Below, in pieces: positions 23,592 to 30,751 of a DNA stretch of 39,116 bases; within the stretch, counting starts at the first letter, position 1, and every line of letters begins with the position of its first letter. A program made the translations under genes and the position numbers. A model generated the notes under the pieces. That model searched no databases. It had not been told where the DNA came from and saw nothing but the letters and a program-made list of their open reading frames with translations. This DNA comes from a virus. The DNA lies in the IMG/VR virus record IMGVR_UViG_3300044960_000368, positions 1 through 39,116 of that record, one strand, 5' to 3'.

Positions 23592-23888
23592 CTACATGCC
23601 GGCCGTGCGCAGCTGGTGCAGCCGAGCTTCCGCTTCCTGCGAGCGTCGCTCGATCTCGGCGTCGTGCAGCAGCTCTTCGGCCGCTGCAGTCAGATCCAGA
23701 CGCCACGCTGGCGTGTTCGTCGCCGGATCGATCACTAGCGTGCAGACATATTCGCCAGCCTGATCGGCAAGATCCTCGGCGACGGCCTCGACCGCGTACT
23801 GCTCTGCGACATGCACAGTGGCATCGTATTTCAGCGGCGTGTGCTCTGCACGCCAAACGTTGATCCACAGAGCCTTTTTGTTGGCCAT
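23592..23888 (-). CDS. Hypothetical 98-residue protein downstream of the TIGR array
   Basis: No family recognised. The product (MANKKALWINVWRAEHTPLK) is beta-rich in its first half (GEYVCTLVIDPATNTPAWRL) and a charged helix in its second (DAEIERRSQEAEARLHQLR). ATG 23888 follows AAGGAGAAG. It is the first gene after the TIGR array on the same strand; whether it belongs to the system or is only a neighbour is unknown. A hairpin-like inverted repeat (23902-23919) separates it from the array end. Confidence 0.65.
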   Translation of the reverse strand: MANKKALWINVWRAEHTPLKYDATVHVAEQYAVEAVAEDLADQAGEYVCTLVIDPATNTPAWRLDLTAAAEELLHDAEIERRSQEAEARLHQLRTAGM

Positions 23889-23920
23889 TTTCTTCTCCTT
23901 ATCCAAACGATTTCGTTTTG

Positions 23921-24362
23921 GTTTCACTCCGGCAACACGGTGCTCTCGAAACATACGGTTCGCTCGACTCTTTCGGTGCTCTCGCATTCTGAGGCTCGCT
24001 TAAGCGGTGCGGTTCTCTCCCGCGGCTCGGCTCGCTCAGTACACACGGTTCGCTCCACATGCACGGCTCGCTCCCAGGTTTCGGTTCTCTCAGAAGGCGC
24101 AGCTCGCTCAACATGAACGGTTCTCTCACGTATCACGGCTCGCTCCTTGTTCGCGATTCTCTCAATGGCTGCGGCTCGCTCTTTCTTCCCGGCGCTCTCG
24201 CCCGTAGCGGCTCGCTCTCCTGAGACGGTTCTCTCTACACCCCAGGCTCGCTCGTAGGGAACGGTTCTCTCCCGATGCCAGGCTCGCTCTGACTTTCCGG
24301 TTCTCTCCGCGACTCCGGACTCGCTCACTGGCGACGGTTCTCTCTGCGAAGTCGGCTCGCTC
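23921..24362 (-). repeat. TIGR array: alternating 9-bp repeats with 9-bp spacers
   Basis: Read on the minus strand, two repeats alternate, type B GAGCGAGCC and type A GAGAGAACC, each followed by a unique 9-base spacer, so the full unit is 36 bases. Repeat starts (left plus coordinate) run from 24354 down through 24336, 24318, 24299, 24281 and then every 18 bases to 23939, with a decayed copy at 23921: 24 clear repeats plus one degenerate. The first lies four bases after the stop of the Nop-domain gene. The first spacers are GACTTCGCA, GTCGCCAGT, CGGAGTCGCG, GGAAAGTCA, TGGCATCGG, GTTCCCTAC; no two spacers are alike. Every spacer after an A repeat starts with G. One step (24299 to 24318) is 19 bases. 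The last five repeats are the most degenerate. The design matches tandem interspaced guide RNA arrays, whose transcripts are cut into 36-nt guides with two 9-nt spacers. Confidence 0.88.
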
Positions 24363-24366
24363 GGCG

Positions 24367-25185
24367 CTACTGCATCGGCCAGTTGGGCGGCCCGATGTAG
24401 TGCGCGTGCCCTTTGATCGCGATGACATAAGGCTTCGGCGGCGGCTCGCCGAACCTGAGTTCGAACATCACGTGATGAAAATGCGCCAGGAAAAGCTTGG
24501 TCGCATAGCGCTGCGCGCGCAGCTCGAGACGCGCGCGAGGCAGCCGCCCCGCTTCGTATTGCTTGCGCGCTTCTGTATCGGCCCCAAAACGCTTTGCCTT
24601 CAACGCCTCCGCAGCCTGTTCGGCATATGCGCCAGCCTCGTTGCGTGCAATCTCGAATTCCTTCCGCATTTTGTAGATCGCGCCGTAGAAAGCGTCGGGA
24701 CGGCCCGATATCTTCGTGAAGCTCTGGCCGATCTTCCATGCGATCAACTTCAACGCAGCATTCCACGGACGTCTCTGGCCGCGCTCCCAGCGGACAGTCG
24801 GATCGAGCCCGGCGAACCGCCAGATGTGACCGACGGTCGGAGCCTTTTCGATGTCGATGTGAGCGAGCAATCCTGCCGAGATCACCGGGCCAATGCCCTT
24901 CACGCTCATCAGCCAGGCACCCACCGGATGGGATTCGACATAGATGCCCAGCGTCTTGCGGATCTGCTGCTCGATGCGCTCATGACGCTTGGCCAGCCAT
25001 TCGACCATGGCGTGCGGAGCATTCTCCTGGATGCATGCGCGCAGCTGCGCGTGATCGCGAATGCGATCCTTCTGCATCTGGTAGTAGACCTTGACCAGGA
25101 ATGCAGCCTCGCGATCTCCGAGCGTCTTGCACGCCTCCTTGAGATCGCGACTGATGATCCATTCAGCATCCGTATCAGTCAGCAC
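24367..25185 (-). CDS. Nuclease-less Tas protein (Nop/IS110 C-terminal-like)
   Basis: This 272-residue protein probably binds guide RNAs from the adjacent array and directs them to DNA. Residues 1-85 are a charged helical domain. Residues 94-111 (SVKGIGPVISAGLLAHID) are a helix-hairpin-helix like that of IS110 transposase C-terminal domains, followed by VGHIWRFAGLDP (118-129), the RPWNAALKLIAWKIGQSFTK helix (139-158) and a C-terminal helix (RYATKLFLAHFHHVMFELRF). This region is related to Nop proteins in published comparisons of TIGR-Tas with IS110. I see no DEDD/RuvC or HNH motif, so it fits the nuclease-free class. The start is GTG 25185 behind GGAGGAAC; it overlaps the upstream gene by 11 bases. 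An automatic annotation would probably say IS110-family transposase. Confidence 0.83.
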   Translation of the reverse strand: MLTDTDAEWIISRDLKEACKTLGDREAAFLVKVYYQMQKDRIRDHAQLRACIQENAPHAMVEWLAKRHERIEQQIRKTLGIYVESHPVGAWLMSVKGIGPVISAGLLAHIDIEKAPTVGHIWRFAGLDPTVRWERGQRRPWNAALKLIAWKIGQSFTKISGRPDAFYGAIYKMRKEFEIARNEAGAYAEQAAEALKAKRFGADTEARKQYEAGRLPRARLELRAQRYATKLFLAHFHHVMFELRFGEPPPKPYVIAIKGHAHYIGPPNWPMQ

Positions 25186-25477
25186 GCTGTTCCTCCGTTG
25201 CCAGATCGCAAGAGCGATTGATCAGCTCCGCCAGGATTTGGAGCTGCCGCTGACAGCGTTCCGTGCGCGCAAAGATCGTGAAAAGACCTTCGCGATTCAC
25301 CTCGATCGTCATCCAGGCAAGCTGCTCGATCGCCGGTACCAGCTTCTCCAAATCCTTCGCGGTACGTCCGACGCGAGCCGAGATTTCATCGGCATTATGC
25401 ACATGCGTCCAGACGACCGGCGTTCGCCGTCTGGGCGACGGCGGATTGCCGTCAGAAGGCTGCTGCATATCACTCAT
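25175..25477 (-). CDS. Hypothetical 100-residue protein upstream of tas
   Basis: No family recognised. After a basic, proline-rich start (GNPPSPRRRTPVVWTHVHN) the protein is helical (ISARVGRTAKDLEKLVPAIE, then FARTERCQRQLQILAELINR). It overlaps the Tas start by 11 bases, so the two are translationally coupled, which makes it a candidate accessory protein or simply an operon neighbour. ATG 25477 lies eight bases inside the end of the upstream gene. Confidence 0.65.
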   Translation of the reverse strand: MSDMQQPSDGNPPSPRRRTPVVWTHVHNADEISARVGRTAKDLEKLVPAIEQLAWMTIEVNREGLFTIFARTERCQRQLQILAELINRSCDLATEEQRAD

Positions 25478-28006: not shown

Positions 28007-28019
28007 GCTATCTCCTATC

Positions 28020-29026
28020 GATTGTGAGGCCTTGCGTTGCGTTGCGTAGCGGAGCGGCGCGTTGCGATGCGTTGCATCGCGGCGCGGCGCGGCGCTTGGT
28101 GCCCATGGCACCTCGGACCGTCTGCACTCCAGGCGGTCGGAGGTGCCAGCCCCTCGCGGAGCTGGCCGAAGCGTTGAGATGCGAGGAGACGCGCGGCGTT
28201 GCGTGGCGTTGCGACGCGTCGCAATGCGTCGCGTTGCGACGCGGCGCTTGGTGCGCATGGCACCTCGGACCGTCCGGGGCCCAGGCGGTCGGAGGTGCCA
28301 GCCCCTCGCGGGGCTGGCCGTTGCGGTGAGATGCGGTGCGAAGCGCAGCGCTGCGCTGCGTAGCGAGGCGCGGCGTGGCGGCGCTTGGTGCGCATGGCAC
28401 CCCAGACCGTCCAAGCTTCGGGCGGTCGAAGGTGCCAGCCCCTCGCGGGGCTGACCGTTGCGTTGCGTTGCGACGCGGTGCGAGGCGGGGCGACGCGGGG
28501 CATAGCGGGGCGACGCGACGCGTTGCGGCGCGGCGCCGTGGTGCGCACGGCACCTCGGACCGTCTGGATTCCCAGGCGGTCGGAGGTGCCAGCCCCTCGC
28601 GGAGCTGGCCGTTGCGGAGCGGCGCGGAGCGATGCGGCGCGGTGCGAGGCGAAGCGGGGCGAAGCGCAGCGACGCGCAGCGCGGTGGTGCTCATGGCACC
28701 TCGGACCGTCTGCACTCCAGGCGGTCGGAGGTGCCAGCCCCTCGCGGGGCTGACCGTTGCGTTGCGTTGCGGCGCGGAGCACGGCGTGGCGCCGCGCTGC
28801 GGAGCGACGCGACGCGATGCGGCGCGGAGCAGTGCAATGCGATGCGTCGCGACGCGTGGCGGTGCGGAGCGGAGCGACGCGCGGTGGTGCCGATGGCACC
28901 TCGGACCGTCCGGGGCCCAGGCGGTCGGAGGTGCCAGCCCCTCGCGGAGCTGGCCGTTGCGTTGCGTTGCGGGGCGAAGCACAGCGCTGCGCTGCACTGC
29001 GCTGCGACGCGCTGCGCGGCGGAGTG
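28020..29026. repeat. Hairpin/pentamer array 2 (six units)
   Basis: A second tract of about 1 kb with the same unit and orientation as array 1. Hairpin pairs start at 28107, 28259, 28396, 28549, 28695 and 28895 (spacing 137-200 bp), separated by GCGNN pentamer runs. Inner hairpin versions are shared with array 1: loop AAGCTTC at 26655 and 28396; CACTC at 26805, 28107 and 28695; ACTC/ATTC at 27111 and 28549; GGC at 28259 and 28895. Some hairpin-2 copies carry GGAGCTGGC or GGGGCTGACC, which weakens one pair. It occupies the gap between the minus genes starting at 28006 and ending at 29049. I see no gene in it. Confidence 0.9.
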
Positions 29027-29048
29027 ATCCTGACAGCGGGACGCAAGT

Positions 29049-29282
29049 TCATGCAGCGCCGCCGTCGATCACACGGAAACGGCGCCGCTCTGTGGCAGCC
29101 ACCTGAACACCCGGTGGGCGTCCCAAGCATGCGACCTGCTGCTCCAGCGTCGCCGCCTGATCGGCCAGGTCGGCCAGCACGTGATGCAGCGCGCGCGCCT
29201 CATCAGCGTTGAACACCCGGCCGCCCTGCAGAAAGTAGCGGCCGAAATGGATCGCCAACCGCTTCAGATCCTCGCTGAGCAT
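29049..29282 (-). CDS. Hypothetical 77-residue protein, first gene of the minus arm
   Basis: No family recognised. It begins MLSEDLKRLAIHFGRYFLQG, has an acidic helix (FNADEARALHHVLADLADQA) and a basic tail (AATERRRFRVIDG). ATG 29282 follows GGAGGAG. A good minus-strand promoter lies just upstream (29313-29341), so this is probably the first leftward gene transcribed. Confidence 0.7.
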   Translation of the reverse strand: MLSEDLKRLAIHFGRYFLQGGRVFNADEARALHHVLADLADQAATLEQQVACLGRPPGVQVAATERRRFRVIDGGAA

Positions 29283-30309: not shown

Positions 30310-30751
30310 TCCCGGCATCGGCGGAGCGATCGCGTGGATCGATCCCGAGCAGGGCGTCTGCATCCACGACATGCCGGTGATGGGTAAGCGCAACCTAATC
30401 AATGGAGCTGAGGTGGCGCGCATCTTGCGACATGCCAAAGACCGGCTTCCATACGCTCATGTGGTTATCGAGCGCGCGCAATCGATGCCGAAACAGGGCA
30501 TCGCAAGTGCGTTCGCCTACGGTCGCGGGTTCGGAACGATTGAAGGCGTTGTGTATGCGCTGCAGTTGCCGCTCACCTTCATCGCACCAGCCGTCTGGAA
30601 GCGTCGCGTCGGAATCGGCTCCGACAAGCGCGAAGCCATCGCGCGCGCGATCCAGCTGCGTCCCGATGCCGCCCCGCTGCTGCGGCGTGTCAAAGACCAC
30701 GGTCGCGCCGAAGCGCTGTTGATCGCCATCATCCACGGAGGCACCGCATGA
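30290..30751 (+). CDS. RuvC-like Holliday junction resolvase
   Basis: This 153-residue protein has the RNase H-like fold of RuvC: Asp7 in IGIDPGIGGAIAW, Glu61 in VVIERAQSMPKQG, the Tyr/Gly-rich FAYGRGFGTIEG segment, the VWKRRVGIGSDKREAIARA helix, and Asp136 with Glu141 in KDHGRAEALLIA. In phages it resolves branched DNA before packaging. The start is GTG 30290. It fits the recombination genes that follow (Sak4-like, DUF669, Cas4-like nuclease). Confidence 0.9.
   Translation: MRTIGIDPGIGGAIAWIDPEQGVCIHDMPVMGKRNLINGAEVARILRHAKDRLPYAHVVIERAQSMPKQGIASAFAYGRGFGTIEGVVYALQLPLTFIAPAVWKRRVGIGSDKREAIARAIQLRPDAAPLLRRVKDHGRAEALLIAIIHGGTA

What the first reader, a model, noticed from the sequence alone, without database searches (positions are those of the whole stretch)
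23921..25185. A phage TIGR-Tas locus: nuclease-less Tas protein with a 24-repeat dual-repeat guide array
Seen: a 272-residue protein with an IS110-C/Nop-like helix-hairpin-helix region and no nuclease motif, followed four bases after its stop by alternating repeats GAGCGAGCC and GAGAGAACC, each with a unique 9-base spacer, giving 36-base units. Known: TIGR-Tas systems, described from phages and parasitic bacteria, pair a Nop-domain Tas protein with arrays processed into 36-nt guides carrying two 9-nt spacers, and Tas is structurally close to IS110 and box C/D proteins. Inference: this alphaproteobacterial phage encodes a nuclease-free version that probably binds DNA without cutting, for example to silence or occlude targets. 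Standard annotation would call the protein a transposase and miss the array.
Basis: partly seen in the sequence, partly recalled or inferred. Interest (0 to 1): 0.97.

Follow-up and report, generated by a model that had tools for sequence, protein, structure and literature searches.

The report
Phage TIGR-TasA RNA-guided DNA-binding locus
A bacterial virus carries a small, recently described RNA-guided DNA-binding system with no cutting domain; the family is known, but a close relative's guides match genes of a rival mobile element in the same cell, a first lead to what such systems are for.

Summary
On the minus strand, 4 bases after the stop of a 272-aa gene, lies a dual-repeat array of 25 repeats (13 edge, 12 loop) forming 12 units of 36 nt. 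Comparison with 41 relatives shows 10-nt repeats with 8-nt spacers, not 9+9. The protein is a Tas protein: NCBIfam TIGR_Tas_endo 5.8e-59, fold match to TasH and TasR (Z 19.5, 18.4) well above IS110 (13.2), no nuclease domain. It is a TIGR-TasA system, the commonest published class: a new member of a known kind. (2) Related phages gain and lose whole such modules. (3) A relative's array, in an Acidobacteriaceae prophage, matches a rival 10-kb tRNA-integrated phage/satellite-like element in the same chromosome: one exact 16-bp site and two with mostly synonymous mismatches, all at gap 0 in the inferred targeting geometry. This candidate natural target suggests RNA-guided repression of rivals' early genes. 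It rests on one lysogen; no target was found for the window's own guides.

The parts
24367..25185 (-). tasA gene: 272-aa solo Nop/IS110-C-like Tas protein without HNH or RuvC domain
   Evidence: NCBIfam NF052498 TIGR_Tas_endo E 5.8e-59, cutoff passed; PDB phmmer TasR 8e-15 and TasH 2e-10, profile 4e-29 and 8e-19; AF2 pLDDT 88.3; fold match TasH Z 19.5, TasR Z 18.4, IS110 13.2, Nop5 7.4
23920..24362 (-). TIGR array: 13 edge repeats (GAGCGAGCCG type) alternating with 12 loop repeats (GAGAGAACCG type), 8-nt spacers, 12 predicted 36-nt tigRNA units
23920..23965 (-). last unit: edge 12 GAGCGAACCG, spacer TATGTTTC, loop GAGAGCACCG, spacer TGTTGCCG, degenerate edge 13 GAGTGAAACC; A7 of edge 12 pairs with T4 of edge 13, a compensatory change between neighbouring edges
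23903..23921 (-). small inverted repeat (CCAAAACGA..TCGTTTGG) at the array end, no T-run; possible transcript-end hairpin or read-through into the next gene
   Evidence: sequence read directly
23592..23888 (-). next gene downstream of the array (98 aa, no family match), same strand, possibly the same transcript
25175..25477 (-). gene just upstream, overlapping the tas start (100 aa, no family match)

Best explanation
This is a phage-borne TIGR-TasA system. Shown here by sequence and predicted structure: a solo-Nop Tas protein, and an array whose conserved unit runs from the middle of one edge repeat to the middle of the next. Inferred from the published family: the tas-array transcript is cut into twelve 36-nt tigRNAs; a TasA dimer holds one tigRNA by the box C/D motifs of edge and loop repeats; the two 8-nt spacers pair with opposite strands of a contiguous 16-bp site, opening and bending the DNA without cutting it. 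Inferred from a relative: the natural targets are early regulatory and replication genes of rival temperate phages or satellites, so binding probably blocks their expression or replication, while the carrier phage's own related gene has diverged at the sites and escapes. Confidence is about 0.97 for the identity, about 0.7 that rival mobile elements are the targets, and about 0.55 that the effect is repression without cleavage.
For: Identity. Array and tigRNA unit: (39 arrays have informative cells; neighbouring-edge pairing beats same-edge pairing in 21 and loses in none). Modules move as units. Target: in the KBS 96 lysogen (tas 54-55% identical) unit 2 matches exactly, gap 0, 25 nt inside an excisionase-like HTH gene; unit 5 with 2 and unit 6 with 3 mismatches fall in the adjacent replication-initiation-like gene. 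Three of the five mismatches are synonymous third positions, and both of unit 5's mismatched bases agree with the carrier's own homologous sequence. The element is 10,153 bp, flanked by a 26-bp tRNA-Glu repeat, with integrase, repressor, rep, small terminase, capsid and protease. The carrier's own rep copy has 7 and 11 mismatches at the two sites (from the alignment). The control orders of the spacers give no exact match in the element.
Against: No RNA or binding data. No target found for the window's 12 units in about 2.9 Mb of terminase, primase and capsid relatives. The target case is one lysogen, with modest statistics: about 0.05 expected by chance for an exact hit (my estimate), times 0.006-0.007 for the two further sites. 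Over 47 carrier contigs there is no overall excess of target-like matches. Units 1, 3 and 4 have no match in the element.
Confidence: 0.7

Rival explanations
1. TIGR-TasA with another role: RNA-guided DNA bending that helps the phage's own integration, segregation or gene regulation, as the discoverers proposed (integrase aid, ParB partner).
For: Some relatives carry a ParB-like gene beside the arrays; the discoverers report TasA-ParB operons and suggest an integrase role (PMC12045711).
Against: No self-targets above background in 586 units; no ParB-like gene recognised beside the window's tas; the one strong target cluster is in a rival element.
Confidence: 0.2
2. A decayed or domesticated IS110-family transposase whose downstream repeats are unrelated or a bridge-RNA relic.
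For: Pfam PF02371 and PHROG 'transposase' labels.
Against: TasH and TasR outscore IS110 in sequence and fold; no catalytic domain; the array is conserved with the gene across diverse phages and its units covary as an RNA.
Confidence: 0.01
3. The array is a tandem-repeat coding region (a 280-aa minus-strand ORF, 23924-24766, runs through it).
For: The period 36 is a multiple of 3 and the ORF is open.
Against: The ORF overlaps tas in another frame; the compensatory changes link neighbouring edge repeats at RNA-pairing positions; relatives keep the array with other periods (34, 37).
Confidence: 0.01
4. The KBS 96 target match is coincidence and the true targets lie elsewhere (plasmids, lytic phages, host genes).
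For: 16-bp sites carry little information; three of six units have no match in the element; no further case was found.
Against: One exact and two near matches within about 930 bp, same geometry, gap 0, in phage genes, mismatches mostly at synonymous positions.
Confidence: 0.25

Closest known systems
TIGR-TasA, e.g. FpTIGR of Flavonifractor plautii (Faure et al. 2025, PMC12045711)
   Same: Solo-Nop Tas protein, dual alternating repeats, two spacers per unit, 36-nt units.
   Different: This family has 8-nt spacers (16 nt per guide; FpTIGR has 18) and GA..CCR repeats; no RNA data yet.
TasH of Salicola phage CGphi29 (SpTIGR; PDB 21kl, 9w04)
   Same: Best fold match (Z 19.5), 27% identity; a phage-borne array with 16 nt per guide.
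   Different: It carries an N-terminal HNH nuclease; the window protein starts at the coiled-coil/Nop part.
TasR (PDB 9mty)
   Same: Nop domain, rmsd 2.6 A over 195 residues; the same kind of edge-repeat pairing.
   Different: It carries an N-terminal RuvC nuclease and uses 9-nt spacers.
IS110/IS621 bridge-RNA recombinases
   Same: Shared RNA-binding domain (Z 13.2).
   Different: They have an N-terminal catalytic domain and a single bridge RNA, not an array.
ICP1 phage CRISPR-Cas against the PLE satellite
   Same: If the target lead is right: a phage-borne guide system aimed at a rival or satellite element (PMC8263062).
   Different: Unrelated proteins and RNA; TasA has no nuclease.

Membership tests
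TIGR-Tas | Tas protein with a Nop domain closer to TasR/TasH than to IS110 or Nop5 | tested here: met
TIGR-Tas | array of two alternating 8-12-nt repeats beside tas | tested here: met
TIGR-Tas | short spacers, two per unit (16-18 nt per guide in the published cases) | tested here: met
   8-nt spacers, 16 nt per guide, as in SpTIGR
TIGR-Tas | edge repeats supply an extra base pair between the two ends of a processed unit; loop repeats lack it | tested here: met
   pos7-pos4 of successive edges: 531 of 534 pair, 165 of 168 informative; loop positions 4-7 mostly A-A
[quoted passage not shown]
   the last edge is degenerate and followed by a small inverted repeat, but there is no T-run
TIGR-Tas | array processed into 36-nt tigRNAs bound by Tas | not testable with these tools
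   needs RNA sequencing
TIGR-Tas | tandem-spacer targeting of opposite DNA strands | tested here: inconclusive
   fits the candidate target sites of one relative; untested biochemically
TasA subclass | no HNH or RuvC domain | tested here: met
   Pfam shows PF02371 only above its cutoff; the model aligns from about residue 64 of TasH and 110 of TasR onward
IS110 transposase | N-terminal RuvC-like (DEDD) catalytic domain | tested here: not met
   absent from the Pfam scan and from the model; NCBIfam IS110 below its cutoff
CRISPR-Cas | Cas effector with a single repeat of 25-36 nt | tested here: not met
   10-nt alternating repeats and a Nop protein
box C/D snoRNP | Nop5 with fibrillarin and L7Ae | not tested
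   only the fold was compared: Nop5 Z 7.4

The most novel reading that the evidence does not exclude
Phage-borne TIGR-TasA is a nuclease-free, RNA-guided repressor of competing temperate phages and satellites: its guides match early regulatory and replication genes of rival elements, of which the carrier has a related copy that has diverged at the sites, and its arrays evolve by gain and loss of whole mid-edge-to-mid-edge modules with drifting spacers.
Probability: 0.5. Interest if true: 0.85.

Novelty: new member of a known kind. Interest (0 to 1): 0.58.

Why it matters
The discoverers of TIGR-Tas could not identify natural targets and left TasA's function open (PMC12045711). An isolate genome holding both a TIGR-TasA prophage and a matching rival element makes that question testable in a laboratory strain, and the module-level comparison of arrays gives a handle on how they change. 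It also shows that the current NCBI family name, 'endonuclease', misdescribes nuclease-less members.

Tried and rejected
Self-targets: none above background in 586 units. Cross-targets among carrier phages, gaps 0-4: isolated exact hits at gap 1 (for example in ParB-like genes), no more than control orders give. Overlapping or swapped targets between arrays: none (its A=B excess came from wrong edge/loop labels in some arrays, corrected). Palindromic bias of unit pairs: none. Five-residue matches to carrier proteomes: no excess. Window units in terminase, primase and capsid relatives: nothing. Relatives of the KBS 96 rival's rep gene in IMG/VR: only the carrier prophage itself; in 200 genomes of its family, only weak matches besides its own. 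A second lysogen (Propionivibrio): one pattern covering two units, no hit. Rfam: no match. DNA search of annotated phages with the locus: no match.

Full report
Observation. The minus strand of 25220-23880 reads tas gene, stop, four bases, then repeats. The array has 25 repeats from 24362 down to 23920: GAGCGAGCC-type (edge) and GAGAGAACC-type (loop) in strict alternation, 12 complete units, the last edge degenerate (GAGTGAAACC). Across 58 arrays in 42 sequences, 1171 of 1218 spacers are 8 nt and the last repeat base is mostly A or G, so the usual layout is 10+8+10+8. Relatives with periods 34 and 37 keep 8-nt spacers and change repeat length instead.

Identity. The 272-aa product hits NCBIfam NF052498 TIGR_Tas_endo at 5.8e-59 (199.7 bits, cutoff 100), with IS110 far below its own cutoff. 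In the PDB its best sequence matches are TasR (8.3e-15) and TasH (2.3e-10), with IS621 at 0.18; a 25-sequence profile gives 4e-29, 8e-19 and 3e-4. The AlphaFold2 model (pLDDT 88.3, pTM 0.85) matches TasH (Z 19.5) and TasR (Z 18.4, rmsd 2.6 A over 195 residues), then IS110 (13.2) and Nop5 (7.4). It aligns to TasH and TasR from beyond their N-terminal nuclease domains, and Pfam finds no HNH or RuvC. By the published definitions (PMC12045711) this is TasA. PHROG calls the family 'transposase'.

Setting. The window is an IMG/VR virus record of 39,116 bases with terminase, portal, capsid, tail, Sak4-like annealing protein, Cas4-like exonuclease, SSB, helicase and primase genes. The closest named terminases are from Rhodobacter capsulatus phages at 62%. 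Forty-three viral contigs and three genomes hold relatives of the protein; annotated phages hold only distant ones. The window's terminase matches none of the 43 contigs, so the locus appears to travel between phage types, though an empty search there is weak evidence.

RNA architecture from sequence alone. If the tigRNA runs from the middle of one edge repeat to the middle of the next, position 7 of an edge should pair with position 4 of the next edge rather than with its own. In 534 distinct units 531 pair this way. In the 168 cells where neighbouring edges differ, 165 pair between neighbours, 109 within the same edge and 121 in the reversed sense. Of 39 arrays with informative cells, neighbour pairing is better than same-edge pairing in 21 and worse in none. 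The window's last unit holds such a compensatory A-U pair. The published TasR structure shows this kind of pairing, with covariation across loci; here it also holds within arrays.

Array evolution. Eight related phages (L007-L014) share modules in which both half-edges, the loop variant and the spacers travel together, in different orders and neighbourhoods, with slow spacer drift. This points to the mid-edge-to-mid-edge module as the unit of gain and loss. How new spacers arise is not shown.

Target geometry. The paper states that the two spacers pair with opposite strands of one site, that gaps of 1-2 bp are tolerated, and that cleavage leaves 8-nt 3' overhangs. Taken with its C-5 rule I infer that the site reads 5'-A-rc(B)-3' on one strand. 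This is my derivation; other orders were run as controls.

Candidate natural target. One relative (tas 54-55% identical) lies in a prophage of Acidobacteriaceae bacterium KBS 96 with a six-unit array. Each unit was sought exactly in that 6.7-Mb genome as A N{0,2} rc(B). There was one hit, at gap 0: unit 2 at 6,329,962, with reversed-pattern controls at zero. It falls 25 nt inside an excisionase-like HTH gene of an early operon next to an XRE repressor and an integrase. In the same operon unit 5 matches with 2 mismatches and unit 6 with 3, both at gap 0 and both in a replication-initiation-like gene. The element spans 10,153 bp between copies of a 26-bp piece of tRNA-Glu and holds integrase, regulators, rep, small terminase, capsid and prohead protease; no large terminase, portal or complete tail module was recognised. 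It could be a satellite or a decayed prophage.

Why the two near matches count. The carrier prophage has its own related gene (59% protein identity over the C-terminal half). In codon alignment unit 6's mismatches are two synonymous third positions and one E-to-Q change; unit 5's two mismatched bases both agree with the carrier's own sequence at that place, one of them synonymous. The units therefore look like matches to an ortholog in a related element. The carrier's own sites differ at 7 and 11 of 16 positions. Given the exact hit, the chance of one further unit at 2 or fewer and another at 3 or fewer mismatches in the element is 0.006-0.007 by two nulls. I estimate about 0.05 for the exact hit itself. 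The combined figure is of order 3e-4, from one lysogen, and the element was chosen because of its exact hit.

What is not shown. No transcription, processing, binding or phenotype was measured. The window's own 12 units have no target in about 2.9 Mb of relatives, and across all carrier contigs target-like matches are not in excess. The role of TasA as a repressor rests on the absence of a nuclease and on published speculation.

Verdict. The interest lies in the target lead and the within-array covariation, which make an open question about TIGR biology directly testable.

Noticed in passing
L007, L008, L010-L014 (arrays after tas, e.g. L011:6783-8215): Several related phages have two arrays and share guide modules in shuffled order; the second arrays have highly variable edge repeats that still pair between neighbours.
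   Followed up: yes
G008 near 30,600, G011 near 45,900, G014 near 30,400: A ParB-like gene lies beside the arrays, like the published TasA-ParB loci; a unit of another phage (L022) matches it exactly at gap 1, which is no more than control orders give.
   Followed up: partly
L046:9735-9942: Two units in one array differ by a single base in spacer A (GAAATAAC, GAAGTAAC) with the same spacer B, as if tracking a variable target.
   Followed up: partly
G044:C1:6321951-6332103: A 10,153-bp tRNA-Glu-integrated element with rep, small terminase, capsid and protease but no recognised portal or large terminase: satellite-like or a decayed prophage in Acidobacteriaceae KBS 96.
   Followed up: partly
window 28718-28917: A 30-bp-period repeat inside an unknown 371-aa ORF (28015-29130, -), relatives of which were found in only two other viral contigs.
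   Followed up: no
window 24367-25185: NCBIfam names the family 'RNA-guided endonuclease', which would mislabel this nuclease-less member.
   Followed up: yes
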